Source of the DNA: Motilibacter rhizosphaerae
GTDB taxonomy: Bacteria > Actinomycetota > Actinomycetes > Motilibacterales > Motilibacteraceae
NCBI RefSeq assembly: GCF_004216915.1
Contig: NZ_SGXD01000001.1
Coordinates: 558,001-622,000, forward strand
Length of the DNA: 64,000 bases
Direction of reading: 5' to 3'
In this document: positions 5,930-63,938 of the stretch, piece by piece
How the letters are laid out: every line of letters starts with the position of its first letter
Numbering within the stretch: the stretch's first letter is position 1
The notes under the pieces: model-generated
Told to the model about the DNA's origin: nothing
Databases searched by the model: none
The model's input: only the letters and a program-made list of their open reading frames with translations
Made by a program: the position numbers and the translations under genes

Positions 5930-5975
5930 GCGCCGCTCGCTCAAGCCGGGGCGGCTCCGGGTCGAAGGACCCCCG

Positions 5976-8900: not shown

Positions 8901-10148
8901 CGCACCGCTGCGGCGGCGAGCGCGGCGCTGTCCGCCCTGCTCGACCCCGAGCAGGTGATCGACCGCCTGCTCGACCTCGTGGTGCCGAGGCTCGCGCCGT
9001 ACGCCGCGGTGGCCCTGCGCGCCGACCTCGCCGACGCGCTCGACGTGCGCACTTCGCGCAGCCGGCAGGGCGACGTCCGGGTCGTCGCGGTGCGCCACGC
9101 CGACCGCGCCGAGGAGGAGCCGCTGAGCAGCCTGCTCCGCGCGCTGCCGCTGCGCACCACCGACGCCGCCGGGGCCGGCGCCGTCACGGGGACGGGCCGT
9201 CCCCAGGAGCGCCCGGTGACCGAGGAGCTGCTGCGCCGGGTCGCGGGCGGGGACGAGGCGGCGTACGCCGCGCTGCGCGCCACCGGCGCGACCAGCGCCT
9301 GGACCGTGCCGCTCGTGAGCCGGGGGCGCACGCTGGGCGCGCTCTCCCTGGCGGAGGCCGGCGCCGGCACCCTCGACCGCGACCTGCTCGCCGACCTCGC
9401 CGTCCGCGCGGCCGTCGCGCTGGACAACGCCCTGCTCTACCGCTCCGAGCGGCGCAACGGCATCGAGCTGCAGCGCCACCTGCTCCCCCGCGTGACGCCG
9501 CAGCGCGCCGACCTGCAGATCGCCACGCGCTACCTGCCGAGCGTGCAGGGCGCGCTCACCGGCGGCGACTTCTACGAGGCGGTCGAGGTCGGCGACGGGC
9601 TGCTCGTCGCGCTCGGCGACGTCGTGGGGCACGGCATGCGCTCCGCCGCGCGCATGGGCCAGCTGCGCGCCATCACCGCCGCGCTCGCGTTGCAGGGGCT
9701 GAGCCCCGGGACCCTGCTCGAGCGGATGGCGGCCGACGTCGACAAGATGCTCGACCTCGGGCTCGCGACGCTGCTCGTCGGGTCGTACGACCCGCAGGGC
9801 CGGCGGCTGACGCTCGCCTCCGCCGGGCACCCGCCGCCGCTGCTGCTCGCCCCGGACGGCACGGCGACCTGGATCGAGGTCGAGCCCGGGCCGCCGGTTG
9901 GGGTGGGCACCGGCGCGTACCCCGAGGTGGTGGTGGACCTGCCGGCGCACGCCACCGTCGTCATGTTCACCGACGGGCTGGTCGAGCGCCGCGACGAGAG
10001 CCTCACGGTCGGGCTCGAGCGGCTGCGCCGCGCCCTCGAGGGCGCGTCCAGCGACCCGCAGGAGCTGGCCGACGCGCTGCTGCTCGCGACCGACCGCAGC
10101 CTCGGTGGCGACGACGACGTGGCGCTGCTCGTCCTGCACCACCACTGA
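5976..10148 (+). CDS. HATPase-GAF-PAS-SpoIIE multidomain regulatory phosphatase
   Basis: Very large (1390-residue) cytoplasmic regulator. An N-terminal HATPase of the anti-sigma (RsbW-like) type occupies about residues 15-130 (VVTELVTNAVLHA, then GRGLSLVESLA). Next come a linker conserved in actinobacterial SpoIIE proteins, two or three GAF modules (about 370-500, 500-650, 670-830), a PAS domain (about 865-960), another GAF (about 985-1140), and a C-terminal PP2C/SpoIIE phosphatase (about 1150-1390; GGDFYEAVEVGDG, GDVVGHG, FTDGLVERR, DDDVALLV). Combining kinase-like and phosphatase modules suggests partner switching on an anti-sigma-factor antagonist, but no sigma factor or STAS protein is nearby. 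The GTG at 5976 has a GAAGGA ribosome site 7-8 nt upstream and overlaps no neighbour. Confidence 0.92.
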   Translation: MTAPASDRPGTACEEQEFPVVPESVPAARRLVREVLAAWDRTAVEDSSALVVTELVTNAVLHARGPVRLVLEPYAAAGVRIEVHDGSPAMPLRPIADAGSTTGRGLSLVESLAEAWAAEPTPRGKRVWVHLVPGTEPDDADFGLHPAGLGELGVDDLESWADLLEEVAPERYSVTLGDVPTDLLLAAKAHVDSLVRELTLTAGGAASGVTGALPEHLAGLISDVVQEFAEARHAIKRQALAAAGRGEPRTTLTLTLPTSAADAGERYLAALEEADRYAHTARLLTLAAPPQHQVFRRWYVTSLVSALRSHAAGEQPPPVPSFESFLLGAVDVLAGLQRASALAAHLHDATQRLSAAGGLDDVARAVLDAAARELDATGGALLLADGRHLRPLATQGDAEAYAGRIPTAGAGAAAVAHRDRTPVWLESNEDRAGEPGAVCGLPLLVAGHSIGALELEFADSRLFSTDERAFLTALAAIGAQTLDRVRLDSSRTQVVHRLTRLQAVTTALGQVRDVEAVLDVALSHAGGLVGAFVAAVTLLDDDGRTLRLARVAPGLPAEFAAPTAYGIDEPLPVAEALRRQQPVWVGSVAERDELFPRLRGLDWGPHGLAVIPLVVEDVVLGALTLGFASPGARLPEPSWEFLSAFADTCAQALDRARSAERVEAANRKLAFLADVTDLLGDTVDVERSLGGVSRLAVPELADLCVFHLLEDGELRALDVQSVDAEGAAAARRFNQTWPARMGDLQGIGRVVREREPLLVPVVPVPEPDDPRAAAVAELGVGSLLSVPLVARGRTIGAMTLVTTGSARSYTAVDLQFAQDLARRIAVGVDNARLFAALGAVSSGSAFGTPGPEQDAGRLAGVLETLAAAFFRVDTEGRFAYLNLQAEQLLLRRREELLGRRVRDVLPELVGTVFAEQYATAARTGRPVSFEAEYAPFGSWLEVRATPDPEGMSVFVQRIDERKAVEAERERANARLRTAAAASAALSALLDPEQVIDRLLDLVVPRLAPYAAVALRADLADALDVRTSRSRQGDVRVVAVRHADRAEEEPLSSLLRALPLRTTDAAGAGAVTGTGRPQERPVTEELLRRVAGGDEAAYAALRATGATSAWTVPLVSRGRTLGALSLAEAGAGTLDRDLLADLAVRAAVALDNALLYRSERRNGIELQRHLLPRVTPQRADLQIATRYLPSVQGALTGGDFYEAVEVGDGLLVALGDVVGHGMRSAARMGQLRAITAALALQGLSPGTLLERMAADVDKMLDLGLATLLVGSYDPQGRRLTLASAGHPPPLLLAPDGTATWIEVEPGPPVGVGTGAYPEVVVDLPAHATVVMFTDGLVERRDESLTVGLERLRRALEGASSDPQELADALLLATDRSLGGDDDVALLVLHHH

Positions 10149-10160
10149 GCAGCAGCGACC

Positions 10161-10227
10161 GGAACGGCCGCCTGCGGCCACTCCGGAACGGCCGCCTGCG
10201 GCCACTCCGGAACGGCCGCCTGCGGCC
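10161..10227. repeat. Three tandem 24-bp hairpin units
   Basis: A 24-bp unit (GGAACGGCCGCCTGCGGCC plus ACTCC) is repeated exactly at 10161 and 10185, with a 19-nt third copy at 10209. Each copy contains GGCCG-CCTG-CGGCC, so the transcript could fold into three consecutive short hairpins. The array begins 12 bp after the SpoIIE-gene stop and probably acts as an RNA-processing or termination element, or is simply a slippage-expanded repeat. Confidence 0.75.
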
Positions 10228-10332
10228 GGGCGTTGGTCGGGAGGGTCCACGCGGTGGCAGACTCGACACTCCGGGCCTGCTCGACGCCGCCCGGCCCGAG
10301 ACGCCCCGTCCCCGACCCCCGGACTCCAGCCT

Positions 10333-12507
10333 GTGACGATCCGTCCCTTCGCGCGCACGTCCCCGACGTCCTCCGGACCGAAGGGCGAGCAGCCGCCCTC
10401 CGCCGCCGAGACCACGATGGTGACCCCTGTCGGGACGCCCGCGCCCTCGGTGCCGTCGGTGTCGCCGCCGTCCGTGCGCTGGGAGCACCCGCTCGAGCGC
10501 GTCGAGGAGATCGCCTCGCCGCCCCGCCGCCCGCGCCTGCCGTGGCTGCGCCGGCGCAAGGTGCTCGTCTGGGCCGGCGTGGTGCTCGTCGTGCTGGGCG
10601 CGCTCGCCGGCTTCGGCGTGTGGATGGCGCTCGGCCTGCGCGACTCGGCCCGCGACGTGAAGACCCAGGCCACGGCCGCCGAGGACGAGCTGACCGCCTT
10701 CCGCACCGTGGCGGGCAGCGACCCGACGGCGGCCTCGCGCCACCTCGACGCGGCGGCGCTGCACCTCGCCACGGCCCGGCGCTCGTCGCGCACGACGCAG
10801 ATGCGCATCGCCGGCGTCCTCCCCTGGGCGAAGATCCCGGTCAGCGACCTCGGGCACCTGCTCGACGCCGCGGACGCGACCGTCTCCGCCGGGCACTACG
10901 CCCTCGACGTCAGCGGTGCGATCAAGCCCGTGCCGGGCTCGTCGCAGCAGCCGCTGTACGCCGACCACGTCTTCTCGCTGCCGGTCGTCCAGCAGACCGC
11001 CGTCAAGGCCCAGCAGATCTCCTCGCTGATGGCGGGCGCCGAGCAGGACCTGCTCGAGGTCGACGGCACCGGGCCCAAGGAGCAGGAGGTGCCGGGCATC
11101 CGGGACCGCGCCCTGGACCAGGTGCGCTCGCTGCGCAAGCAGATGGAGCAGGCGCTCCCGCTGCTGCGCCTGCTGCCGGGCGTGCTCGGTGCGGACACCC
11201 CGCGGACCTACCTCGTCACCGTGCTCAACCAGGCGGAGATGCGCCCCTCGGGCGGTGCCCCGCTGTCGGTGGCGACGCTGACCCTGGACAAGGGCGTCAT
11301 GACGCAGGGGGCGGCGCAGTCGACCTCCGACGTGAAGTTCCCCAACGGGCTCGCCCAGGGCGCCGGCAAGGGCTTCATCAACGCGCCCGTGCCGTGGAAG
11401 CCGGCCGTCGCCGACCCCTTCTTCTCCGGCCAGCGGGTGAAGGGCAAGACCTACACGCCGTTCGTCAACGCCAACACCGACCCCGACTTCCGCGTCTCGG
11501 GCCAGAACCTCGCGCTCGCCTGGCAGGGCGGGACCGGCCAGCACATCGACGGCGTCATCGCGCTCGACATGAACGCCGTCCGCGAGCTGCTCCGCGTCAC
11601 GGGCGGCGTCGACGCCGCCGGCTACGGCCAGGTCAACGACCAGAACGTCGCCCAGCTCCTCCTCGCGAACGTCTACGCAGAGGCGGACAGCCCGCAGCGC
11701 CACCTGCTCAACGCCGCGCTCATGGGCGGCCTCGTCCAGCGGCTCTCCGAGGGCGGTGGGCTCACCGACAAGGCGAAGGCGCTGTTCGCCTCGGCGCCGG
11801 GGCGGCACTTCCAGATCTGGATGGCGGACCCCTCCGTCCAGCAGTTCATCAGCGGGGCGGGGCTCTCCGGCGCGGTGGCGGCACCCGCGACCACCGGTGA
11901 CCGCATCGCGCTGTTCAACCAGAACCTCAAGGGCGCCAAGGTCGACGCGCTCCAGCAGCGCACGGTGGACGAGATCATCACGATGCAGGCCGACGGCTCG
12001 GCCAAGGTGCAGCGCACGGTGACGCAGAGCAACGGCGCCATCGACCGCAGCGGCAAGATGCTGGAGTACGGCGAGCTCAGCGGCTTCGCCCGCGACAGCC
12101 TCGTCACGGTGCTGCCGACGGGCGCGTCCGATGTGACGACCCCGCCGGCACCCGCGAAGCCCCAGCAGGGCGCGACGCAGGTGCTCGGCAAGCGCCAGGT
12201 CCTCGCGGTCGGTGGGCTGAGCTACCTGCGCCAGCCCGTCCAGATCGCGCCCGGCTCCACCGGGACCTGGCCCGTCACCTTCACCATCCCCAAGGCGGCG
12301 GTGGCGGAGGGCGACGGGATGACCCTGCAGGTCGCGTACGACGCCAACAACGACCTCACGCCCGTGCGCACGCGCACCGTCGTCATCCCCCCGCCGGGCT
12401 GGCGGGTCACGGGCGGGACGGGGGTCCAGGTGGCGAGCGGCCAGGGCGTGCTGGACGTCGCGCTGGACCGTACGCAGACGCTCTCCGTGGTCCTGAGCCG
12501 GGGCTAG
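10333..12507 (+). CDS. DUF4012 domain membrane protein
   Basis: Protein of about 724 residues with a proline-rich cytoplasmic N-terminus, a basic patch (RRPRLPWLRRRK) and one transmembrane helix near residues 77-99. A large extracytoplasmic region follows, including the DUF4012 domain in its middle (VLNQAEMRPSGGAPLS and the IDGVIALDMNAVRELLRVTGGV segment). DUF4012 proteins are commonly found beside actinobacterial exopolysaccharide genes; this one lies between a signalling phosphatase and the ole operon, about 5 kb from the sugar locus. Function is unknown. The start is uncertain: GTG 10333 gives the longest sensible protein, while ATG 10417 would shorten only the disordered N-terminus. Neither has a strong ribosome site. 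Confidence 0.82.
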   Translation: MTIRPFARTSPTSSGPKGEQPPSAAETTMVTPVGTPAPSVPSVSPPSVRWEHPLERVEEIASPPRRPRLPWLRRRKVLVWAGVVLVVLGALAGFGVWMALGLRDSARDVKTQATAAEDELTAFRTVAGSDPTAASRHLDAAALHLATARRSSRTTQMRIAGVLPWAKIPVSDLGHLLDAADATVSAGHYALDVSGAIKPVPGSSQQPLYADHVFSLPVVQQTAVKAQQISSLMAGAEQDLLEVDGTGPKEQEVPGIRDRALDQVRSLRKQMEQALPLLRLLPGVLGADTPRTYLVTVLNQAEMRPSGGAPLSVATLTLDKGVMTQGAAQSTSDVKFPNGLAQGAGKGFINAPVPWKPAVADPFFSGQRVKGKTYTPFVNANTDPDFRVSGQNLALAWQGGTGQHIDGVIALDMNAVRELLRVTGGVDAAGYGQVNDQNVAQLLLANVYAEADSPQRHLLNAALMGGLVQRLSEGGGLTDKAKALFASAPGRHFQIWMADPSVQQFISGAGLSGAVAAPATTGDRIALFNQNLKGAKVDALQQRTVDEIITMQADGSAKVQRTVTQSNGAIDRSGKMLEYGELSGFARDSLVTVLPTGASDVTTPPAPAKPQQGATQVLGKRQVLAVGGLSYLRQPVQIAPGSTGTWPVTFTIPKAAVAEGDGMTLQVAYDANNDLTPVRTRTVVIPPPGWRVTGGTGVQVASGQGVLDVALDRTQTLSVVLSRG

Positions 12508-12598
12508 CGACCGGCGCCGTCGCGTGCGACGCGGCGGATCGGGGAAGATGGGACTTCCGCGGGAAGCCATCCCGCACTCACGGACGACGAGGACACAC

Positions 12599-13624
12599 GT
12601 GGCCGGCAACGCCTCCTACACCCTCCGCAACACCGCACTGCTGTCGGTGGCGGGCCTGGAGGGCCCGGTCGTCGTCACGTCCGCCGAGATCGACGAGCGG
12701 CTCGCCGAGAGCATGGCGCGGCTGCGCCTGCGCCCGGGGACCCTCGCGACGCTGACCGGCATCGTGGAGCGGCGCTGGTGGCCCGAGGAGGTCTCCTTCG
12801 CCGACGCCGCGGCGATGGCGGGGGCCAAGGCCCTGTCCGAGGCCGGGGTCGACCCGTCGCAGGTCGGCCTGCTCATCAACTCCAGCGTCTCCCGCGAGCA
12901 CCTCGAGCCCTCCACCGCCTCGGCCGTCCACCACCTCATGGGCCTGCCGCCCACGGCGCTCAACTTCGACGTCACCAACGCCTGCCTGGGCTTCGTCAAC
13001 GCGGTGCAGATCGCGGGCACGATGATCGACTCCGGCGCCGTGCAGTACGCCGTGGTGGTCGACGCCGAGGGCGCCCGGCAGACCCACGAGGCGACGATCG
13101 CGCGGCTCTCGCGCCCCGAGACGACCCGCGAGGACTTCCTCCGCGAGTTCGCGACGCTGACGCTGGGCTCCGGTGCCGCCGCGGCGGTGCTCGGGCGCGC
13201 CGACGAGCACCCCGGCGCGCACCGCGTCCTCGGGGGCATCAGCCGGGCCGGCACCGAGCACCACGAGCTGTGCGTGGGTGACCTGCAGCAGATGCGCACC
13301 GACCACAAGGGCCTGCTCGAGGCGGGCGTGCAGCTGGCGCGCGACGTCTGGGCCGAGGCGCGCGAGGCCGGCTGGGACTGGTCGGCCATGGACGCGTACG
13401 TCATGCACCAGGTCTCGGTCGTCCACACCGCCTCCATCGTCGACGCGCTGGGCATCGACCCCGACAAGGTGCCGACGACCTACCAGCGGCTCGGCAACGT
13501 CGGCCCGGCGGCGCTCCCCATCACGCTCGCCGACCACGCCCCCGAGCTCAGCCCGGGCGACCGGGTGCTCTGCATGGGCATCGGCTCGGGGCTCAACACG
13601 AGCGTGCTCGAGATCGCCTGGTGA
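12599..13624 (+). CDS. oleA: OleA, acyl-CoA head-to-head condensing thiolase
   Basis: First enzyme of long-chain olefin biosynthesis: non-decarboxylative Claisen condensation of two fatty acyl-CoAs to a 2-alkyl-3-ketoacid. It is a 341-residue KAS-III/thiolase-fold protein with Cys129 in NACLGF, His270 in YVMHQVS and Asn300 in LGNVGPAALP, the expected catalytic set. By sequence alone it could be read as a FabH-like 3-oxoacyl-ACP synthase III. The directly following hydrolase-AMP-ligase fusion and NAD-dependent reductase identify the Ole pathway. GTG 12599 is preceded by GAGGA at a suitable distance, and the stop overlaps the oleBC start by 4 bp, so the three genes form one operon. Confidence 0.92.
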   Translation: MAGNASYTLRNTALLSVAGLEGPVVVTSAEIDERLAESMARLRLRPGTLATLTGIVERRWWPEEVSFADAAAMAGAKALSEAGVDPSQVGLLINSSVSREHLEPSTASAVHHLMGLPPTALNFDVTNACLGFVNAVQIAGTMIDSGAVQYAVVVDAEGARQTHEATIARLSRPETTREDFLREFATLTLGSGAAAAVLGRADEHPGAHRVLGGISRAGTEHHELCVGDLQQMRTDHKGLLEAGVQLARDVWAEAREAGWDWSAMDAYVMHQVSVVHTASIVDALGIDPDKVPTTYQRLGNVGPAALPITLADHAPELSPGDRVLCMGIGSGLNTSVLEIAW

Positions 13625-16197
13625 CCTCTCCGCTGTCCGACCTGCCCACCTCCGAGCTGCTCGACCCGCCCCTCCCCGCCGGCCTGCCCGGGCTGGATCC
13701 GGCCTGGTCCCGCGCGGTCCGCGCGCTCGACGCCGACGGCGTCGAGCGCACGTGGCACGTCCTCGACAACGCCCCCTCGCTGGCCGGACCCGCGCAGGGC
13801 ACCGTGCTCTGCGTCCACGGCAACCCGACCTGGGCGTACCTCTGGCGCTCGGTGCTGGCCGCCGGCGCGGCCCGCGGGTGGCGCGTCGTCGCCGTCGACC
13901 ACCTCGACATGGGGTTCTCCGAGCGGACCGGGACGCTCCGGCCGCTCGCCCGCCGCATCGACGACCTCGGCCGCGTCGTCGACGCCCTGGGGCTCGAGGG
14001 CCCGGTCGTCACGCTCGCCCACGACTGGGGCGGTATCGTCTCGCTGGGCTGGGCGCTCGCCCACCGCGACCGGCTCGCGGGCGTCGTGCTGTGCAACACC
14101 GCGGTCTCGGAGGCGGGCGCCGCGCTGCCCGCCCCGCTGCGCCTCGCGCGCGCCGACGCGCTGCTCCGCTTTGGCACGACGACGACCCCGGCCTTCCTCG
14201 AGACCACGCTCGCGCTGGCCCACCCGCCGCTCGCGCGCGAGGTGAAGGAGGCCTTCCGGGCGCCCTACCGCCGCGCCGAGCGCCGGCGGGCGGTGGGGGA
14301 CTTCGTGGCGGACATCCCGCTCGAGCCCGACCACGGCTCGCGCGCCGCGCTGCTCGACGTCGCCGGGCGGCTCGGCGAGCTCGCCGACGTCCCCGTGCTG
14401 CTGCTGTGGGGCCCGCGCGACCCGGTGTTCTCCGACCGCTACCTGCGCGACCTGCGCGCGCGGCTGCCGCACGCGGACGTCCACCGCTTCGAGGGCGCCG
14501 GCCACCTGCTGCCCGAGGACGCCGACGTCGCCGGCACGCTGCTCGCCTGGCTCGGCTCGGCGCGCGTCCCGGCGGCCCCGCCCCTCGCTCCGGCGGTGCG
14601 CCCGCTGTCCGCGGCGCTGGAGGAGCGCCGCGCCGACCCCGGTCCCGCCGTCGTCGAGCTCGGCGAGGGGGCGCGCACGGTCTCGTGGGCGCAGCTCGCG
14701 ACCCGCGTCGACGAGCTCGCGGCCGGCCTGCTCGCGAGCGGGGTACGCCGGGGCGACCGCGTCGCCCTGCTGGTCCCGCCGGGCACCGAGCTCACCTCCG
14801 TGGTCTACGCCTGCCTGCGCATCGGCGCCGTCATCGTCGTCGCCGACGCCGGGCTCGGGCTCCCCGGCCTCCACCGGGCCGTCCGCGGGGCGGGCCCCGC
14901 GCACGTCGTCGGCATCGCCCGCGCCCTGGTCGCCGCCCGCGCCCTCGGCTGGCCGGGCTCGCGCTTCCTCGCCGGCCCGGGCCGCGCGCTCCGCCTCGGC
15001 ACCCCGCTGGACGAGCTCGCCCGCCGCGGCCGCGCCGCCCTCGCCACCACCCCGCTCCCGCCGCCGCCCGGCCCGACGGAGGAGGCGGCGGTGCTGTTCA
15101 CCTCCGGGTCCACCGGGCCCGCGAAGGGCGTCGTCTACACCGTCGCGCAGCTCGCCGCCGTGCGCGACCTGCTCGCCGCCGCGTACGCCGTCGGGCCCGG
15201 GACGCGGCTCGTCGCGGGGTTCGCGCCCTTCGCGCTGTTCGGGCCCGCGCTCGGTGCGGTCTCCGCCGTCCCGGACATGGACGTCACCGCCCCCCGCACG
15301 CTCTCGGCCACGGCGCTCGCCGACGCGGTCGCCGCCGTGGGCGCCACCGTGGTCTTCGCCAGCCCGGCGGCGCTCGCCGGCGTCCTCGCCACGCGCGGCG
15401 CGCTCGACCCCGCCCGGCGCCGAGCGCTCGAGCAGGTCGAGCTGCTGCTCAGCGCCGGCGCGCCGGTGCCGGCCGCGCTGCTGCGCCAGGTCCAGGAGCT
15501 CGTGCCGCGCGCGTCGCTGCACACGCCGTACGGCATGACGGAGGCGCTGCCCGTCACCGACATCGACCTCGTCGGCATCGAGGAGGCCGGCTCGGGCGAC
15601 GGCGTCTGCGTCGGCCACCCGCTGCCCGGCGTGGAGGTCGCGCTGGCGCCGCTGACCTCGACCGGCACGGCCCCCGGCCCGCTCGTGGACGTGCCGGACG
15701 TGCTGGGCGAGATCGCCGTCCGCGGCGCCCACGTCAAGGAGCGCTACGACCAGCTCTGGCTCGCCGAGCGGGCCTCCACGCGCGACGCCGGCTGGCACCG
15801 CACGGGCGACGTCGGGCACCTCGACGCCGAGGGGCGGCTCTGGGTCGAGGGCAGGCTGGCGCACCTCGTGCTCACCGCGGAGGGCCCGGTCGCGCCCGTC
15901 GGCACCGAGCAGCGCCTCGAGTCCGTGCCGGCGGTGTCCCGGGCCGCGCTGGTCGGCGTCGGCCCGGCCGGGGCGCAGCGGCTGGTCGCGGTCGTCGAGG
16001 CGCCGGGGACCGCCGCCGGCGTGGCGCCCCTCGAGCTCGCCGACGCCTGCCGCGCTGCAGCGGGCCGCGAGCTCGTCGCCGTGCTCGTCGTGGCGGTCCT
16101 GCCGACCGACATCCGGCACAACTCGAAGATCGACCGCACGCGGGTCGCGCGCTGGGCGCAGCGCGTGCTCGCCGGCGAGCGGGTCGGCCGCCCGTGA
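13621..16197 (+). CDS. oleBC: OleBC fusion: beta-lactone decarboxylase plus beta-lactone synthetase
   Basis: 858-residue natural fusion. Residues 1-about 310 are an alpha/beta hydrolase related to haloalkane dehalogenases (OleB): the HGNPTW oxyanion segment, nucleophile Asp135 in HDWGG, and His295 in GAGHLL. OleB decarboxylates the cis-beta-lactone to the alkene. Residues about 325-858 are an AMP-forming ligase-fold enzyme (OleC): phosphate loop TSGSTGPAKG at 494-503, HTPYGMTE, HRTGDVGHLDAEGR, and Lys836 in NSKIDRTR. OleC converts the beta-hydroxy acid to the beta-lactone. Fused OleBC proteins are known in Actinobacteria. Both halves keep their key residues, so both activities are expected. 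The GTG start overlaps oleA's stop, and the end overlaps oleD's start, each by GTGA. Confidence 0.93.
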   Translation: MTSPLSDLPTSELLDPPLPAGLPGLDPAWSRAVRALDADGVERTWHVLDNAPSLAGPAQGTVLCVHGNPTWAYLWRSVLAAGAARGWRVVAVDHLDMGFSERTGTLRPLARRIDDLGRVVDALGLEGPVVTLAHDWGGIVSLGWALAHRDRLAGVVLCNTAVSEAGAALPAPLRLARADALLRFGTTTTPAFLETTLALAHPPLAREVKEAFRAPYRRAERRRAVGDFVADIPLEPDHGSRAALLDVAGRLGELADVPVLLLWGPRDPVFSDRYLRDLRARLPHADVHRFEGAGHLLPEDADVAGTLLAWLGSARVPAAPPLAPAVRPLSAALEERRADPGPAVVELGEGARTVSWAQLATRVDELAAGLLASGVRRGDRVALLVPPGTELTSVVYACLRIGAVIVVADAGLGLPGLHRAVRGAGPAHVVGIARALVAARALGWPGSRFLAGPGRALRLGTPLDELARRGRAALATTPLPPPPGPTEEAAVLFTSGSTGPAKGVVYTVAQLAAVRDLLAAAYAVGPGTRLVAGFAPFALFGPALGAVSAVPDMDVTAPRTLSATALADAVAAVGATVVFASPAALAGVLATRGALDPARRRALEQVELLLSAGAPVPAALLRQVQELVPRASLHTPYGMTEALPVTDIDLVGIEEAGSGDGVCVGHPLPGVEVALAPLTSTGTAPGPLVDVPDVLGEIAVRGAHVKERYDQLWLAERASTRDAGWHRTGDVGHLDAEGRLWVEGRLAHLVLTAEGPVAPVGTEQRLESVPAVSRAALVGVGPAGAQRLVAVVEAPGTAAGVAPLELADACRAAAGRELVAVLVVAVLPTDIRHNSKIDRTRVARWAQRVLAGERVGRP

Positions 16198-56684: not shown

Positions 56685-57428
56685 TTAAATATGACGACTC
56701 GTAACCACAGGAACCGCAGTCAACAGATGTGGGGCTGGCTGCCGTTCGTCGCCGGAGCTTATACGCAGACTGCACGCTCCTTCAATCAACTGATGAGCTG
56801 CCCAGCGACCGTCGACGATAGGCGCGAACAGTAGCGCCGACCCCAAAAAACTCATCAGGCCTTCAGGGCCCGAGAGCAGGTCGTGCCCAATGAAGTGGTA
56901 AGAGCGCCCTGAATTCAGCAGCCATCCCCTCTGCTTCAGGACTGTCAAGTGATCGAGCACCAGCTCCTCGTTCTCAGGCGAAACCTTAACTCGGTAGTCC
57001 AGCATGGGGATGTGCCACTCACGGGCGTCGTAGCCGACTAGCCGCGAACTTAGCGTTAGAATTTGCCCGGGCGTCAGATGGCCTACTTCTTCGGCCAACA
57101 GGGCCTCGACTTGCGCCGGATTTTTCAACGGAATTGGCCTGCTGCTCGACACCTCAGCCATGGCGTGGTGGTATCTGGCCTGAGTGAGGACGTCCACTCG
57201 AACTTCGGGTGGTTGCCCGGAGAGCCGACTAAACAACGCATCCCAGAAGGGGCGATTAGTTTCGCTCTTGTCAGCCTTCGCAGCGGCCACTAGGTTCGCT
57301 GTCCCGGTAGTCCGCGCTCGCTTCTGCATTCTTCCAGCAACCGTGAACCTGTGCACTTGCGCCGTTGCCATGTCGAATGTTGTGAGTATCCGAGGGAGCT
57401 CTTCAAGGATGGTAATCGTGGCGGTCAC
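56685..57428 (-). CDS. Unrecognised protein with primase-like motif spacing (third gene of ThsA-like operon)
   Basis: 247 residues from GTG 57428, which overlaps the phosphoribosyltransferase stop as GTGA. I do not recognise the family. The C-terminal half has MLDYRVKVS (Asp144), an LNSGRSYHFIGHDLL segment (Ser176-x-His178), Asp206 in VDGRW and ACSLRISSG (Arg222). This order (acidic strand, SxH, Asp, Arg) recalls archaeo-eukaryotic primase/PrimPol folds. The first motif lacks the second Asp of DxD, so activity is uncertain. The N-terminal half is helical and basic (VAGRMQKRARTTG). Low G+C, like its operon partners. Membership in a nucleotide-signalling defence system is inferred from the neighbours. 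Confidence 0.72.
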   Translation of the reverse strand: MTATITILEELPRILTTFDMATAQVHRFTVAGRMQKRARTTGTANLVAAAKADKSETNRPFWDALFSRLSGQPPEVRVDVLTQARYHHAMAEVSSSRPIPLKNPAQVEALLAEEVGHLTPGQILTLSSRLVGYDAREWHIPMLDYRVKVSPENEELVLDHLTVLKQRGWLLNSGRSYHFIGHDLLSGPEGLMSFLGSALLFAPIVDGRWAAHQLIEGACSLRISSGDERQPAPHLLTAVPVVTSRHI

Positions 57429-58162
57429 GCGAGGCTCCCAGCGGTCGTCGTCAACAACCAAGCGTAACCTTCCGCCCGGGAATCCCTCAGATCCAACCTG
57501 CGACGCCAAAAGACGCGCGAATGCTCGTTGAAGTCCGGATTAACCCGGCGCCCTAATGTGAGGATTCCAATCACACTTATCCCAGCGGCACCTAGAGTTG
57601 CCGCTGCGGTTTGAGCTCTTGCGCCACTTACATAGGCGTCCTCGAGTAGCAAAACCCGGCCTAGAGGCAGTGTAGGTTCGACCATGAACAGGCCAAGGTC
57701 GTACCTCCGGTGTTGTCCGGGAACGCCTGTGGACCGAAGGCCGTGGCACACCGTCATCCCCGCACTCGCCATCACGTCCCCGACGCCTAGGCCAGAGCGC
57801 CGGCGAGTGGAAGGAATCGGAACTGCAACGTCCCAGTCCGAGCCGAAGTAGTTCGCGACGGCGGGCTCGTACTGGCTCATGAAGCTGGAGAGCATTGCTG
57901 CAAGTGCTTCCGACTCATGCGCAGCGTTCATGCGCTTGTATTCTGTAAGGGCGTCCCTGACTTTTGAGGGCTTCGCGAAAAGGGTGATGGGCAGCACAGG
58001 TGTGAGCGAAGACAGCGTTCCCGCCGCGTTGGTGCAAGTTGGACAAGCTGAACCGGACTCATCCGTCCAACTGTGACATGTCGGGCAGCTGTCGCTGCTG
58101 GGGAACGGGAGCACCGGAGCCCAGGCCTGCCAGACCTCGTTCCAACACGGTTGCGTCTTCAT
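57425..58162 (-). CDS. ComF-like phosphoribosyltransferase with N-terminal zinc ribbon
   Basis: 245 residues. An N-terminal ribbon has C26-x2-C29 and C40-x2-C43. The PRTase fold follows, with VAVPIPSTRRRSGLG (about 112-126) and a PRPP-binding loop VLLLEDAYVSGARAQ (Glu174-Asp175, Ser179-Gly180-Ala181). The layout is that of ComF-type proteins, but it is linked to a SIR2-SLOG gene rather than competence genes, like the effector-associated PRTases proposed in nucleotide-based conflict systems. ATG 58162 lies one base beyond the upstream stop, giving re-initiation; TTG 58192 is an alternative. It would use PRPP to modify or hydrolyse a base or nucleotide; substrate unknown. Confidence 0.85.
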   Translation of the reverse strand: MKTQPCWNEVWQAWAPVLPFPSSDSCPTCHSWTDESGSACPTCTNAAGTLSSLTPVLPITLFAKPSKVRDALTEYKRMNAAHESEALAAMLSSFMSQYEPAVANYFGSDWDVAVPIPSTRRRSGLGVGDVMASAGMTVCHGLRSTGVPGQHRRYDLGLFMVEPTLPLGRVLLLEDAYVSGARAQTAAATLGAAGISVIGILTLGRRVNPDFNEHSRVFWRRRLDLRDSRAEGYAWLLTTTAGSLA

Positions 58163-58163
58163 G

Positions 58164-59576
58164 TCAGGAAGAGTATGTGGCCCATCTGACAAGGCGCTGA
58201 ACGGCCAGCGCGACAGCGTCGGTGTCAGGCTGCGCTAGTGCTTGCCAGTGCCGCTCCGCTTCAGCAACGCTGTCTCGTGGGACGGGTATCCTGCTAGCGC
58301 TCAGGCCGGCCCTCCATTCAATCAGCGCCGTGCCGGCAGTGATGGCAACGGGGATGACGGGCAGACCCTGTTCTCTTGCGGCGTCGACCTCGAGTCGCGT
58401 CCGACTTCCACCACCAAACAACAAGAATGCGCGAACGTCCTGGAGAGCTGATGCGCGTAGATCCTCGACGCTATCCTGAGTGTGAATCCGCGTGCCCATC
58501 AACGCATGAGACTCCTTCTTTCGCGCGCCATCAGGGAAGAAGAAGCGAATCTTCTCAGGGGCGTCCGACACGCCTCGTTGACGCAAGGTGCGAGCAAAAG
58601 CGTGCGAAATCTTGCCAGCGTATGTCCCGGCCAGGGAAGCTAAGGATATATCCAATTCCGCCAGGCGAGATCCAATCGACCGCGCCAACGCGTCCAACGG
58701 AATGCGGCCGTCCTCCTGAACGCTCCCAGAAACGAACAAACTCGGAGGGCGAAGTCGCAGTGACAGCTCTCCCAGCAGGCCGTCGAGTTCCGCGTACTCG
58801 GGTATCTCCACTACCTCCACTCCAGAAGACTCGAGATCCTGGACGCGAAGTTCATGCGCCCGCAAGTCGAGCCCTCCACTCGGGCGCCGCATGACCGTGA
58901 AGTGTTGCTCGGCCGCTTGCAGGCTTCGTGCAAGCCGGAGCATCACATTGATATTAGGGTCGTCGAAACTGAAACCAAGGAACAACATCTTCTGGGTTAA
59001 ATAAGTGGACTTCAAGAGATTCCAGATGAGCGGTCGCCGCTGCTCGTATTGTTCGTAGTCACGTCGGGTCAGCACGGGGTCAACGAACTCTGCGGTGCGG
59101 CCGACCCCTTGAATCCCGCCGTGCATCTTGATCAAACGCTTACCCGGTGTCGCTCTGCACGCGACAAGATCCGAATCCGTGGCTATAACAACCGGACTGC
59201 TGCCCGTCGCCTGCATGGCCCGCTCAAGTAGATCGTCGTAGTTCTGAGTCCACAGGTGCGTCATGGGCATTCTCGCCAGAAGCTCGTGCCCCTTGCTCGG
59301 TGCTTGACTACCCGACTTCGCGGTAATTAGCGCACCGACCCGGGCCTGCAGGCGGTCGCGGCCCAGGGCTACGTCTTGCGAGTAGTACTCAGCTACTAGG
59401 GGCAGGTCTCGAACGGAGGCCGGGACCTTCGCCTCCCGCCGCGGGCCCTTCATCAGGTCATTCCAGTCGGGCAAGCCAGCACGGCGTGAGAGCCCAGCAC
59501 CGACTAGTACCGTTGCATTGCCCGCGTCAGCCGCACCACCGAAGCGGCTGACAAATGTTTCGCGGTCGACCGGCAT
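58164..59576 (-). CDS. ThsA-like SIR2-SLOG NADase (Thoeris-type effector)
   Basis: 470 residues. The SIR2 domain (about 1-275) has VLVGAGLSRRAGLPDW (NAD-binding), WTQNYDDLLERA with Asn112, IKMHGG with His152, and MLFLGFSFDDPNI. The SLOG/STALD domain (about 279-430) starts SLFVSGSV and contains FFFPDG and FLLFGGGSRTRLEVDAARE. Length, domain order and both catalytic positions coincide with Bacillus cereus ThsA (476 aa, N112/H152), the NAD+-depleting effector activated when its SLOG domain binds a TIR-made cyclic ADP-ribose isomer. ATG 59576 has GGGGGAG upstream. First gene of a three-gene operon; no TIR gene adjacent. Lower G+C than the surroundings. Confidence 0.9.
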   Translation of the reverse strand: MPVDRETFVSRFGGAADAGNATVLVGAGLSRRAGLPDWNDLMKGPRREAKVPASVRDLPLVAEYYSQDVALGRDRLQARVGALITAKSGSQAPSKGHELLARMPMTHLWTQNYDDLLERAMQATGSSPVVIATDSDLVACRATPGKRLIKMHGGIQGVGRTAEFVDPVLTRRDYEQYEQRRPLIWNLLKSTYLTQKMLFLGFSFDDPNINVMLRLARSLQAAEQHFTVMRRPSGGLDLRAHELRVQDLESSGVEVVEIPEYAELDGLLGELSLRLRPPSLFVSGSVQEDGRIPLDALARSIGSRLAELDISLASLAGTYAGKISHAFARTLRQRGVSDAPEKIRFFFPDGARKKESHALMGTRIHTQDSVEDLRASALQDVRAFLLFGGGSRTRLEVDAAREQGLPVIPVAITAGTALIEWRAGLSASRIPVPRDSVAEAERHWQALAQPDTDAVALAVQRLVRWATYSS

Positions 59577-59608
59577 CGGCTCCCCCACTTCACGACCTTG
59601 ACGTGGGC

Positions 59609-59614
59609 ACCCTA
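59609..59614 (-). promoter_or_regulatory. Candidate -10 box of the ThsA-like operon
   Basis: TAGGGT on the minus strand, giving a start site near 59602 and a leader of about 26 nt that contains GGGGGAG. No clear -35 box. Confidence 0.4.
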
Positions 59615-59906
59615 GTCGCTTCCATCGCTCGGCGCAGTCGGAGCGGCGGACTAGTCGGTCGCCCCCACGAATGCCGCGCGCTGCCGCATCTAAGCGGTTG
59701 AGCCCGCCGGTTGTCGATCGGCCAACGACGCAGGTTCGAGGCTTGCGCTTCCGCATGCGCAGCCTGTAACCCTTTTTGACCGCCCCGACCGGCGGTGGCC
59801 CCCGCAGGCGGCCTTCTAGTCCGGAATGGTGCAGTCTACGCCCCGGCGTCGTTCGACCCCGCGGGTCCTAACGCACACTGCCGCCAGTTTCAAGAGGGTC
59901 ATCGTG

Positions 59907-60003: not shown

Positions 60004-63000
60004 CTAGCTGACGGGGATCCCCTCGATCGCGGGCACCCGAACCGCACCAGCCGTGCCTGGGTTCAGCTCCGCCGCCTGGTCGACACCAGCCGGCGTGAGC
60101 ACGTCGATAATCTTCGGCAGCTGGTCCAGCGGCACCGAGCAGATCGGGCTCGAAGCCGTCGCCGCGCTGCACCGCTCGAGCTGGTAGCCCTGCGGCGTGT
60201 CCGAGAACCCGCGCGCCTGGTCGGACGAGAACCCGTCCTGCCCGTGCAGCGTGACGGCGAACTTCCAGCCGGCCGTCGGCGTACCGCCCAGTGCCGCCTT
60301 CGGCACGACCACCGTGATGGTCTTGGCGATCTGGCTCGGGATCACCGAGACAGCGCCCTGGTTGTTGCCGGCAGCGTCGACGAACACCGGGGACGTGAAG
60401 CCCTGGATCTCCAAGCGCCGGCTCCAGGCGGAGTCGGGCGCGATGGTGAAGTTGCGCGACGGGTAGCCGGGCGACGTCGAGGTGACGCCGGCACCGGGCT
60501 CGGCGACGTAGATGTCGAGCAGCTGCGCGCCGATCGGCGAGCCGAAGGTCGGCGTCAGGTCACCCACGGTCGTGCGCAGGACGATGTTCGCCCCCGTGTC
60601 GATGACCTCGAAGCGGCGCAGGTCGAAGGCGCCCGCGTGGAAGTCCGACGCGGTCGGGTACCCGTAGGTCCCCGGGCCGTTGTCGTCGCCCGCCGGGTCG
60701 GTCACGTCGAGCACGGTCGTGCCGGCGATGAAGCTGGAGACGACGCTGGCGCGCGCCGTACCCGTCGCGTTCCCGAGCGAAGCCGCGGCCGCGATGTCCG
60801 TCGTGCCGGTCGGCGTGGGCACCGAAGCGCTGAACGCGCCGTTGCCGTCAGCCGTGACGACGACGTCCGTCGTGCCGGTCGTGCCGCCCTCGAGGAGCGC
60901 CTGCACGGTGACGGTCGCGCCCGGCGTGGTCGTGCCGGTCACGGTGGTCGTGGCCGCGTTGACCTCGCTGCTGTCCGCCGGGGACGTGATCGTCACCGGG
61001 AGGGACGCGATCGGGCCACCGGCGTACCGCGCCTTCACGATCGACGGCTGCTCGACGACCGTGCCGGTCGCGATGCTGCGCGCGAGGCGCACCTCCTCGG
61101 CCTGCGCCCAGGTCAGCGGCGAGGCGCTGCCCGCGGCGTGGCCGTTCTGGAAGCCGATCGAGGCGACGGCCGGGTCGGTGCCGTACGGCGAGGCCGGCAG
61201 GTCGGGGTCCTCCCACACCTGCTCGGGCACGAGCCCGACGCCCGACGCGGAGTTGATCATGAAGAGCAGGCGGTCGGTCGCCGTCTGCGGCTGCCCGAGC
61301 GCGAGCTCCTGCTCACCGTGCTCTCCGGAGAGCACCGGCCACAGGTGGCCCGAGCCCTTGTCGGTCGTCGGCCACGGCTGCCCGTTGACCGCGCAGTCCG
61401 TCGGGTCCGGCACGTAGCAGTCGCCGTAGCCGTCCTCCGAGCCCGGGTCGTTGGTGCCGTAGCGGTAGTAGCCCTGGCCCGTCGACGTCGTGCGCCCGAT
61501 CGCCGAGTCCAGCAGCGGCAGCGTCGCGAGGACGTCGGGGTCGTTCGCCGGCAGGACGCCGAGGCGGGTCAGCTCGAGGAAGCCGCCGTCCAGCACGTTG
61601 CGCTGGTCGGTCGTGATGCTGCCGTTGCCGAGGCTGTAGGTGATCGCCGCGTTCGGGTCGCCGGTCTTCGACAGGCGGATGAAGTAGCGGCCGCTGCCGA
61701 GCGAGCCGGTCGTCGTGACCGTCCAGCCCTTGATCTGCCGCTGGTACGAGTCGGCCGTCGCCGCGTAGACGCGGGCCGAGGCGCTGTCACCGTTCTGGTC
61801 GGCGATGGCGGCCGCCGCGACGAGGCCGGCGATCTCCGCCGCGATCGTCGACGGCGAGTAGCCCGCCTGCTCCTCCCAGCGCTCGTTGCCGTACGACGGG
61901 CCGTGCGCCACGACGAAGTCGGCCGCCGGCTTGATGTGGTCCTTGTAGAGGGCCGCGTCACCGCCGAGCCCGGCCTGCCACGCCGCGAGGACGGGGAAGG
62001 CGTTCTCGTCGAGCTGCACGCCCTGGCTGTCGTAGTTCAGCGCGCCGTTGAGCAGCGAGTTGCGGGGGAAGCTGCCGTCGGGCTGCTGCTGCACGTCAAA
62101 CAGCCAGCGCACGATCTCCTGCTGCGTCGTCTTGTCGCCGTCAGCGAGGAAGCCGGTGAACGCCTCGTACAGGTCACGGGAGAAGATCTCGCGGTACGAC
62201 CCGAACCACGGCGCGAGGTGCGTCGTCGGGTCCGCGGTGCCGGCGCTCACGTCCTGGCCCCACGGGCTGGCGAGCGACGCGACGACCGCGCCCTTGTAGG
62301 TCTTGTCCTCGCTGGCCTTCAGCACGTTCGCCGACAGCCAGTACTGCGCGGCGGCGTTGGCCGCGACCGCGTCGGTCTGCCTGGGCAGGTGCGCCGGCGG
62401 CTGGTTGAGCCGGCTGTCGTACTTCTTCCAGTCCTTGAGGTAGTCCCCGCGGACCTGGTCGAAGGGCAGGTGCGCACTCTGGTACGCGGTGTGCGCCGCG
62501 CGCCCCTCCCGCCGCGAGTCGTAGCCCAGCGCCAGCGTGAAGGCGCCGCTGCTCACGTCGACCTGACCCGTCTGCACGACGTTGCCGTGCAGTGCCGGGG
62601 ACCGGTCGTTGGTCAGCGCGTGCTGCGCGTCGAGCTGCGTGAGCCCGTCGCTCGCACTGCCGACGAAGCCGCTGTTGACCGCGAGGAACGGCTTGTCGGC
62701 GGCGATCGCGCCGAACACCGCCCCGGCGTACGTCCGGTTGACTGCCTGCGTCGCCGTCGAGGTGTCGCCCGTGACGAGCGCGCCGGTCGAGGTGTCGTAC
62801 GTCGCGTCGTCGGCGCCCGCGTTGTCGGTGCCGCCGCCCCCGTTGCCGTTCGCCGTGCCGTCGTAGCGCACGAAGACCTTGAGGTCCTTGCGGTTCGTGA
62901 CGATCCGCGTGTGCATGATCACGCTGTCGTTGCGGGGGTCGGTGATGTACTCCGTGACGAGCGAGTAGCCGTGCGCCGCCGACGTGCTGGTGACCTCGCA

Positions 63001-63372
63001 GGACATGCCCGTGAGGTCCGTCGTGCGGACCGTGTAGGTCGTGTCGCGGGTCTGCAGGTCGGTGAAGCTCGACCCGTCGGTGACGACGTACTGCAGCGTC
63101 TCGACGTTGGTGTTGTCGATCGTCGGCCAGTAGACGTCCGAGAGGACGCCGCCGGCGACCGTGAACCACACCTTCGAGCGGTCGGTCGCTGACGTGCCCA
63201 GGCAGTCCTTGCGGGCCAGGTCGTAGTGGGACAGGGTCCCGGGTCCGCCGGTCACGCTGGGTGCCGGGGGCTTGGTGGACGCGGATGCAGCACTGGGAGC
63301 AGCAAGAGCTCCCGAGGCCAGCGCACCCGCAACTGTGAGGATGGTCGGCGTCAGCCGACGACTCGTGCGCAT
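60004..63372 (-). CDS. Secreted GH15 glucodextranase/glucoamylase-like enzyme
   Basis: About 1122 residues. Signal peptide, then the glucodextranase N domain (about 40-310, GVLSDVYWPTIDNTNVETLQY), an (alpha/alpha)6 GH15 catalytic domain (about 330-790), an Ig-like domain with TSPADSSEVN (about 800-880) and a glucodextranase C-like domain (about 890-1080). Catalytic acid Glu500 lies in RWEEQAGYSPST and base Glu684 in LWPVLSGEHGEQEL. It releases glucose from alpha-glucans (starch-type or dextran; not distinguishable by eye) outside the cell. ATG 63372 or GTG 63378 are both possible starts. Two CTTGCAG repeats lie upstream, and MarR is the next gene upstream on the same strand. Confidence 0.93.
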   Translation of the reverse strand: MRTSRRLTPTILTVAGALASGALAAPSAASASTKPPAPSVTGGPGTLSHYDLARKDCLGTSATDRSKVWFTVAGGVLSDVYWPTIDNTNVETLQYVVTDGSSFTDLQTRDTTYTVRTTDLTGMSCEVTSTSAAHGYSLVTEYITDPRNDSVIMHTRIVTNRKDLKVFVRYDGTANGNGGGGTDNAGADDATYDTSTGALVTGDTSTATQAVNRTYAGAVFGAIAADKPFLAVNSGFVGSASDGLTQLDAQHALTNDRSPALHGNVVQTGQVDVSSGAFTLALGYDSRREGRAAHTAYQSAHLPFDQVRGDYLKDWKKYDSRLNQPPAHLPRQTDAVAANAAAQYWLSANVLKASEDKTYKGAVVASLASPWGQDVSAGTADPTTHLAPWFGSYREIFSRDLYEAFTGFLADGDKTTQQEIVRWLFDVQQQPDGSFPRNSLLNGALNYDSQGVQLDENAFPVLAAWQAGLGGDAALYKDHIKPAADFVVAHGPSYGNERWEEQAGYSPSTIAAEIAGLVAAAAIADQNGDSASARVYAATADSYQRQIKGWTVTTTGSLGSGRYFIRLSKTGDPNAAITYSLGNGSITTDQRNVLDGGFLELTRLGVLPANDPDVLATLPLLDSAIGRTTSTGQGYYRYGTNDPGSEDGYGDCYVPDPTDCAVNGQPWPTTDKGSGHLWPVLSGEHGEQELALGQPQTATDRLLFMINSASGVGLVPEQVWEDPDLPASPYGTDPAVASIGFQNGHAAGSASPLTWAQAEEVRLARSIATGTVVEQPSIVKARYAGGPIASLPVTITSPADSSEVNAATTTVTGTTTPGATVTVQALLEGGTTGTTDVVVTADGNGAFSASVPTPTGTTDIAAAASLGNATGTARASVVSSFIAGTTVLDVTDPAGDDNGPGTYGYPTASDFHAGAFDLRRFEVIDTGANIVLRTTVGDLTPTFGSPIGAQLLDIYVAEPGAGVTSTSPGYPSRNFTIAPDSAWSRRLEIQGFTSPVFVDAAGNNQGAVSVIPSQIAKTITVVVPKAALGGTPTAGWKFAVTLHGQDGFSSDQARGFSDTPQGYQLERCSAATASSPICSVPLDQLPKIIDVLTPAGVDQAAELNPGTAGAVRVPAIEGIPVS

Positions 63373-63425
63373 GGGCACAACGAAGCACGCCGGAGGCCGC
63401 TCGGCAAGAGGAGAGCTGATGGAAT

Positions 63426-63452
63426 CTTGCAGATGACGTCAGCCGCTTGCAG
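63426..63452. promoter_or_regulatory. CTTGCAG direct repeats (putative MalR operator)
   Basis: CTTGCAG occurs at 63426-63432 and 63446-63452, exactly 20 bp apart, with the palindrome TGACGTCA (63434-63441) between. Repeats of this heptamer mark MalR-regulated amylase and maltose promoters in Streptomyces. They lie 54-80 bp upstream of the GH15 start. Confidence 0.7.
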
Positions 63453-63455
63453 GGC

Positions 63456-63938
63456 TCACGCTCGATCGCGCTCCGCCTCGAGCGCAGCGACCTGCTGACG
63501 TACGCGCTCGCTGAGCCCGGCGAGGACCGCGAGCTCCTCCCGGCTGAGCAGGTCGACCACGGCCGCGCGTACCACGGCCACGTGCCGGGCGGCGGCGGTG
63601 CCGATCAGCTCGCGACCACGCGGAGTGATCGCCGTGACGGAGCCGCGGAGGTCATCGGCACAGGGCTCGCGGGTGACGAGACCGCGCCCCTCCATGCGGG
63701 TCAGGTGCTGGGAGAGCCGTCCCTTCTCCCAGTGCAGCAGCTGCTGCAGGGCGCGGGGGCGCAGCCGGCCGTCCGGCGCCTCGCTGAGGTGCACGAGCAC
63801 CCGGTAGTCGGCGGTGGACAGCCCCGAGTCGGTCCGGAGCCGGCGGTCGAGGAACTCGGCCAGCCCCTCGTGCATGTCGATGATGCTGCGCCACGCCCGT
63901 GACTCGTCCTCGTCGAGCCAGCGCGGGTCCTCGGTCAC
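63456..63938 (-). CDS. MarR family transcriptional regulator
   Basis: 160 residues with a winged helix-turn-helix (LSTADYRVLVHLSEAPDGRLRPRALQQLL, then WEKGRLSQHLTRMEGRGLVTRE, and the wing DDLRGSVTAITPRG), flanked by dimerisation helices. Typical MarR length. It is divergent from a strong promoter that reads out of the window at 63968-63996 and carries a MarR-type inverted repeat, so it probably represses that unseen gene. GTG 63938 follows TACCAT by 6 nt, a leaderless arrangement. It may or may not affect the GH15 gene behind it. Confidence 0.94.
   Translation of the reverse strand: MTEDPRWLDEDESRAWRSIIDMHEGLAEFLDRRLRTDSGLSTADYRVLVHLSEAPDGRLRPRALQQLLHWEKGRLSQHLTRMEGRGLVTREPCADDLRGSVTAITPRGRELIGTAAARHVAVVRAAVVDLLSREELAVLAGLSERVRQQVAALEAERDRA

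What the first reader, a model, noticed from the sequence alone, without database searches (positions are those of the whole stretch)
63426..63452. CTTGCAG direct repeats 20 bp apart before a GH15 glucan hydrolase
The heptamer is the repeat associated with MalR control of amylase and maltose genes in Streptomyces. Two exact copies two helical turns apart sit just upstream of an alpha-glucan hydrolase, which predicts MalR-type regulation conserved in this lineage.
Basis: partly seen in the sequence, partly recalled or inferred. Interest (0 to 1): 0.6.

Follow-up and report, generated by a model that had tools for sequence, protein, structure and literature searches.

The report
MalR-type switch before glucan-degrading gene
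Two copies of the short DNA word CTTGCAG, exactly 20 bases apart, sit in front of a secreted dextran/starch-degrading enzyme gene, and the same word recurs in front of other starch-degrading genes and a maltose-type regulator gene of this bacterium, so it is very probably the switch through which a known kind of sugar repressor (MalR) controls them: a well-supported new case of a known system.

Summary
In detail: CTTGCAG lies at 63426-63432 and 63446-63452, in the 83-bp gap between a GH15 gene (60004-63372, minus strand, glucodextranase-like) and a MarR gene. It is not chance. The 4.3-Mb genome holds only two exact CTTGCAG direct pairs with gaps of 5-30 bp; both have a 13-bp gap (0.002-0.02 expected) and both lie about 50 bp upstream of a secreted glucan hydrolase (this GH15, and an amylase-pullulanase). 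With one mismatch allowed, two congeneric genomes give four sites, all before glucan hydrolases; one is the congener's GH15 ortholog, where spacer and upstream gene differ but the 20-bp spacing is kept. CTTGCAG also precedes a CBM20 alpha-amylase and an orphan LacI regulator whose Embleya orthologs end malE-malF-malG-GH13 operons. The alpha-glucosidase conserves an inverted repeat built like the Actinoplanes AcrC operator. Best explanation: half-sites of a MalR/AcrC-type LacI repressor of alpha-glucan degradation. Binding is inferred, not shown. MalR control through direct or inverted CTTGCAG repeats is already described for Streptomyces and Actinoplanes, so this is a new member of a known kind; the recurrent two-turn direct arrangement is the only unusual point.

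The parts
63446..63452 (+). CTTGCAG copy distal to GH15 (CTGCAAG along the gene); CCGCAAG in the congener
   Evidence: aligned with congener
63426..63432 (+). CTTGCAG copy proximal to GH15 (CTGCAAG along the gene); identical in the congener within the conserved block CTGCAAGATTCC
63433..63445 (.). 13-bp spacer; sequence diverged but length kept in the congener
63402..63408 (-). CTTGCCG, conserved in the congener: putative -35 (TTGCCG), possibly also a weak third half-site
   Evidence: not scored by the consensus scan; inference
63379..63384 (-). TTCGTT (TTAGTT in the congener), putative -10, 17 bp from TTGCCG and 6 bp before the ATG: suggests a leaderless mRNA
   Evidence: inference, one search found no consensus promoter
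60004..63372 (-). secreted GH15 glucodextranase-like enzyme (1122 aa), the presumed target gene
   Evidence: Pfam PF09137, PF00723, PF09985; PDB 1ug9 over residues 41-1045; substrate not tested
63456..63938 (-). MarR-family gene upstream; not conserved next to GH15 in the congener, so not considered the regulator
   Evidence: Pfam MarR_2; congener neighbourhood

Best explanation
The two CTTGCAG copies are half-sites of an operator for a MalR/AcrC-type LacI-family repressor. They lie two helical turns apart just upstream of the GH15 promoter, so two repressor units can sit side by side on one face of the DNA and hold the promoter off; release is expected when a maltodextrin-type effector binds. 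The same half-site, as direct (13-bp gap), inverted (3-bp gap) or everted (2-bp gap) repeats, would place GH15, an amylase-pullulanase, an alpha-glucosidase, a CBM20 alpha-amylase and malR itself in one alpha-glucan regulon. Shown by computation: the sites, their rarity, their confinement to glucan genes, the spacing conserved in the congener, and a MalR-type LacI gene with the word in its upstream region. Inferred: that MalR is the binder, that it represses, the effector, and the promoter geometry.
For: Two exact pairs in the genome, both gap 13, both upstream of secreted glucan hydrolases against 0.002-0.02 expected. With <=1 mismatch, 4 of 4 sites in two genomes precede glucan hydrolases. 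Spacing kept in the congener's GH15 (73% identical) although spacer and upstream gene changed. Alpha-glucosidase conserves GGTTCTTGCTGCCGTTGCAAGAACC in the congener and GGTTCTTGCAGGTGGTGCAAGAGTC here, the layout of AcrC operator O1; the CBM20 amylase site GTGCAAG-AA-CTTGCAG has the layout of O2 (PMC5526262). MalR-type LacI P0002: 65-66% identical to LacI proteins in Embleya malE-F-G-GH13 operons and beside a Nonomuraea GH13 gene, the Embleya binding protein matching maltose-binding 8art/GacH; CTTGCAG about 40 bp before its start. MalR core site CTTGCAG as direct or inverted repeats is published (PMC5526262); tandem LacI-family sites about two turns apart are read as cooperating dimers (PMC4052901).
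Against: LacI dimers normally need inverted half-sites; no convincing second half is seen at either direct copy. The pair points opposite ways at GH15 and at the amylase-pullulanase. The direct pair at the alpha-glucosidase is not kept in the congener. P0002 lies away from any malEFG and was not found at the syntenic place or elsewhere in the sampled third of the congener. Homologs of GH15 outside the genus lack the pair. Orthology to Streptomyces MalR rests on synteny and similarity to unnamed relatives, not on a direct comparison.
Confidence: 0.7

Rival explanations
1. The sites are bound by the paralogous LacI regulator L022 (C1:639355), which heads a GH13 / binding protein / permease / alpha-1,3-glucanase operon about 18 kb from GH15, instead of or together with P0002.
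For: L022 and P0002 share the recognition helix GVSEATVSRVLNG, unlike the other LacI proteins whose helix could be read, and are 51% identical; GTGCAAG-N14-GCGCAAG lies upstream of L022.
Against: Its own upstream elements are poorer matches with 21-bp spacing; its operon has a counterpart in Streptomyces fungicidicus with its own LacI, which points to a local regulator; CTTGCAG itself is absent from its upstream region.
Confidence: 0.13
2. A different regulator that reads direct repeats head-to-tail (for example an AraC/XylS-type or MalT-like activator) binds the 20-bp direct pair upstream of the -35 region and activates the gene.
For: Direct repeats two turns apart with fixed spacing, upstream of the presumed -35 at GH15; no clear inverted partner at either copy.
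Against: The same half-site occurs in inverted or everted form at the alpha-glucosidase and amylase and singly before malR, matching MalR/AcrC sites; at the amylase-pullulanase the pair has the opposite orientation and, if TAGGTT is the -10, would overlap the promoter.
Confidence: 0.1
3. The pair is the operator of the neighbouring MarR-family protein.
For: MarR gene ends 3 bp from the distal repeat.
Against: The congener keeps the repeat upstream of GH15 but has no MarR gene there; the repeats lie downstream of the MarR gene, and other copies in the genome are far from it.
Confidence: 0.03
4. Chance repetition with no function.
For: Single CTTGCAG copies are at background frequency in the window; orthologs outside the genus lack the pair.
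Against: 0.002-0.02 pairs expected at this gap, two seen; all pairs with <=1 mismatch at glucan genes; spacing conserved across a diverged spacer.
Confidence: 0.04

Closest known systems
MalR (Reg1) regulon of Streptomyces lividans/coelicolor (as summarised in PMC5526262)
   Same: Core word CTTGCAG, as direct or inverted repeats (3-15 bp spacers at amylase and chitinase genes), upstream of amylase and maltose genes; LacI-family repressor
   Different: Here the regulator gene is not beside malEFG; the recurrent form is a direct pair with exactly 13 bp between; targets include a glucodextranase-like GH15; binding untested
AcrC of Actinoplanes sp. SE50/110 and its operators O1/O2 (PMC5526262)
   Same: Alpha-glucosidase site has the O1 layout (CTTGCTG-3 bp-inverted), CBM20 amylase site the O2 layout (CTGCAAG-2 bp-CTTGCAG)
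   Different: AcrC controls acarbose genes acbD/acbE; the GH15 and pullulanase sites here are direct, not inverted
Tandem LacI-family operator pairs (RafR, ScrR and others; PMC4052901)
   Same: Two binding units about two helical turns apart, read there as cooperating dimers (peaks at 22 and 32 bp)
   Different: There each unit is a palindrome; here only one half of each unit is recognisable, spacing 20 bp
Glucodextranase of Arthrobacter globiformis I42 (PDB 1ug9/1ulv; organism from general knowledge)
   Same: Domains N, GH15 catalytic and C-terminal binding module over residues 41-1045
   Different: Sequence divergent; activity of this protein untested

Membership tests
MalR-type (LacI-family) operator | CTTGCAG half-site repeated upstream of an alpha-glucan or maltose gene | tested here: met
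MalR-type (LacI-family) operator | Repeats inverted so that a LacI dimer can contact both halves | tested here: not met
   GH15 and pullulanase pairs are direct; inverted or everted only at alpha-glucosidase and amylase. The literature also reports direct MalR repeats (PMC5526262), so this weakens the model without excluding it
MalR-type (LacI-family) operator | A MalR-type LacI protein is encoded in the same genome | tested here: met
   P0002: Pfam LacI domains; 65-66% identical to LacI proteins of malE-F-G-GH13 loci
MalR-type (LacI-family) operator | MalR-type gene present in the congener that keeps the element | tested here: inconclusive
   absent from the syntenic place and from about a third of the genome sampled; searches exhausted
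MalR-type (LacI-family) operator | The protein binds the site and maltodextrins release it | not testable with these tools
   needs EMSA or footprinting
Regulatory site conserved by selection | Repeat spacing conserved in orthologs while the spacer changes | tested here: met
   GH15 ortholog of G001; limited to one congener
MarR operator | Site travels with the marR gene | tested here: not met
   site kept in the congener without marR
Glucodextranase (GH15) | Domain N + GH15 catalytic domain + C-terminal binding module | tested here: met
Glucodextranase (GH15) | Hydrolyses alpha-1,6 glucan (dextran) from chain ends | not testable with these tools
   needs an enzyme assay

The most novel reading that the evidence does not exclude
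A LacI-family repressor that uses direct (head-to-tail) half-sites exactly two helical turns apart as a genuine operator class beside its inverted sites, employed in this genus for secreted glucan hydrolases.
Probability: 0.15. Interest if true: 0.5.

Novelty: new member of a known kind. Interest (0 to 1): 0.33.

Why it matters
It turns a two-word sequence hint into a predicted alpha-glucan regulon (GH15, amylase-pullulanase, alpha-glucosidase, CBM20 amylase, malR) in an actinobacterium outside Streptomyces, with exact coordinates to test. It also gives a clean test case for an odd point about MalR: why its CTTGCAG half-sites are found as direct repeats although LacI-family dimers are expected to read inverted ones.

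Tried and rejected
(1) Chance: rejected by expected counts and position. (2) MarR operator: rejected because the congener has no marR there. (3) General use of the 13-bp gap across the class: direct pairs at any gap 0-30 occur in 216 of 395 genomes and gap 13 is rare among the listed rows (list truncated), so no sign of this exact spacing outside the genus. (4) Conservation in distant GH15 homologs: Streptacidiphilus jeojiense has one CTGCAAG, the other homologs none near the start; Nonomuraea none. (5) Hidden palindromes around each direct copy: compared by eye at 2- and 3-bp spacers, not convincing. (7) Two class-wide protein searches failed at the server yet counted, so the MalR search in the congener was by sampling stretches only and is inconclusive. 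(8) Pullulanase conservation: the syntenic place in the congener lacks the gene. (9) L022 was first taken for MalR because of its operon; the operon ends in an alpha-1,3-glucanase and has a Streptomyces counterpart with its own LacI, so it is more likely a local regulator. (10) The sigma-70 consensus scan found no promoter in the gap. (11) The primary Streptomyces papers on Reg1/MalR are not held; their content is cited through PMC5526262.

Full report
Observation. CTTGCAG lies at 63426-63432 and 63446-63452, 20 bp start to start, 13 bp between. The pair sits between the stop of a MarR gene (63456-63938, minus) and the start of a GH15 gene (60004-63372, minus). Read along the GH15 gene it is CTGCAAG-CGGCTGACGTCAT-CTGCAAG. 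The GH15 protein has the glucodextranase domains N, GH15 and C, and its best solved relative is glucodextranase 1ug9, E 6e-156, so an exo-acting alpha-1,6-glucanase is the likeliest activity (inference).

Is it more than chance? Single copies of the heptamer are not enriched in the window (6 versus 4.0 +/- 2.0). Pairs are. The whole 4.3-Mb genome has only two exact direct pairs with any gap of 5-30, and both have gap 13, against 0.002-0.02 expected at that gap. The second pair (C2:1104874-1104900) ends 48 bp before the start of a secreted 1917-aa protein with an amylase domain and a pullulanase-type alpha-1,6-glucosidase domain. With one mismatch allowed, the genome and its only held congener (G001) together give four hits: those two, GTTGCAG-N13-CTTGCAG before a GH13 alpha-glucosidase-like gene (C2:1063290), and the GH15 ortholog in G001. 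All four precede glucan hydrolases, while most two-mismatch hits lie inside genes.

Conservation. The GH15 ortholog of G001 (73% identical) has CCGCAAG-ATCACGTCAATCT-CTGCAAG: the spacer sequence has changed, the 20-bp spacing is kept. The upstream gene is different there, so the element belongs to GH15 and not to MarR. Downstream, both genomes share TTGCCG-N17-TT(C/A)GTT-N6-ATG, which I read as a promoter with a leaderless start; the consensus scan does not score it, so this is inference. GH15 homologs at 54-56% identity in Streptacidiphilus, Solirubrobacterales and Nonomuraea records lack the pair.

The rest of the regulon. In 768 kb of this genome, chosen to cover all LacI genes and alpha-amylase-family genes found, the non-coding CTTGCAG copies within 150 bp of a called start lie before the amylase-pullulanase (two), the alpha-glucosidase, a CBM20 alpha-amylase (GTGCAAG-AA-CTTGCAG), an orphan LacI gene (P0002) and one arabinose-type LacI gene; GH15 adds two more. 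Because these stretches were chosen around such genes this is supportive rather than unbiased; the genome-wide pair search is the unbiased test. The alpha-glucosidase ortholog in G001 (73% identical) has the palindrome GGTTCTTGCTGCCGTTGCAAGAACC. That is the layout of AcrC operator O1, CTTGCTG-3 bp-TAGCAAG, and the amylase site has the layout of O2, CTGCAAG-2 bp-CTTGCAG (PMC5526262).

The regulator. The genome has 31 LacI-family genes. P0002 (about C3:892571-893590, minus) is 65-66% identical to LacI proteins that in Embleya end binding protein-permease-permease-GH13 operons and in Nonomuraea follow a GH13 gene. The Embleya binding protein matches a putative secreted maltose-binding protein (8art) and GacH, E 2e-118 and 9e-111. 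I therefore call P0002 a MalR-type protein by synteny; direct comparison with Streptomyces MalR could not be run. CTTGCAG lies about 40 bp before its start, as expected for autoregulation. Among the LacI proteins whose helix could be read (about three quarters), only P0002 and L022 share GVSEATVSRVLNG. L022 heads a GH13/transporter/alpha-1,3-glucanase operon and is the main rival binder.

Mechanism. Published MalR sites are CTTGCAG as inverted or direct repeats with 3-15 bp spacers (PMC5526262). Tandem LacI-family sites show peaks at 22 and 32 bp, read as two cooperating dimers (PMC4052901). The simplest model is two MalR units on the two half-sites, repressing the adjacent promoter until a maltodextrin-type effector releases them. 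What fits poorly is the lack of a recognisable second half at each copy and the opposite orientation of the pair at GH15 and at the pullulanase gene.

Verdict. MalR-type control is the best explanation (about 0.7); binding, effector and the congener's malR are untested. As a kind of system it is known; what is new is the membership of this regulon and the recurrent 13-bp gap.

Noticed in passing
window 58164-59756 (-): 530-aa SIR2-domain protein matching ThsA (Thoeris defence) models over residues 63-477 (E 1e-58; Pfam SIR2_2); neighbouring genes 57425-58192 and 56685-57509 match no defence model, and no ThsB was looked for.
   Followed up: partly
L080 7355-15683 (G000 C1:639355-647683): LacI (L022) - GH13 - binding protein - two permeases - alpha-1,3-glucanase operon, LacI 69% identical to one in a similar Streptomyces fungicidicus plasmid operon; GTGCAAG-N14-GCGCAAG upstream of the LacI gene.
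   Followed up: partly
L069 6890-6941 and L131 1511-1526: Even palindromes with the same half-word (CTTGCAGCGGTGCAAA and TTTGCAGCGCCGCAAA) between a LacI gene and a binding-protein/permease/GH51-like operon, and a perfect CTTGCAGCGCTGCAAG before a GH43-like gene in the congener: another LacI paralog, probably for arabinose, seems to share the CTTGCAG half-site.
   Followed up: partly
window 63434-63441: Perfect palindrome TGACGTCA inside the spacer; the congener has TGACGTGA on the corresponding strand but shifted by 3 bp relative to the repeats. Meaning unknown.
   Followed up: no
L110 (G000 C1:174415-176553): Second glucodextranase-N/GH15 protein (40% identical over the shared part) with no CTTGCAG-like pair upstream.
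   Followed up: partly
L228 1025-1310 and L229 1215-1470 (Embleya): Repeated TTGC(T/G)GAAA-N2-TCTTGCAAG-like motifs upstream of malE in both Embleya records, a possible local form of the MalR operator.
   Followed up: no
L088 around 5860-15400 versus G001 C15:119.4 kb: About 21 kb holding the amylase-pullulanase, a subtilase and ESX-like genes is missing from the syntenic place in the congener.
   Followed up: no
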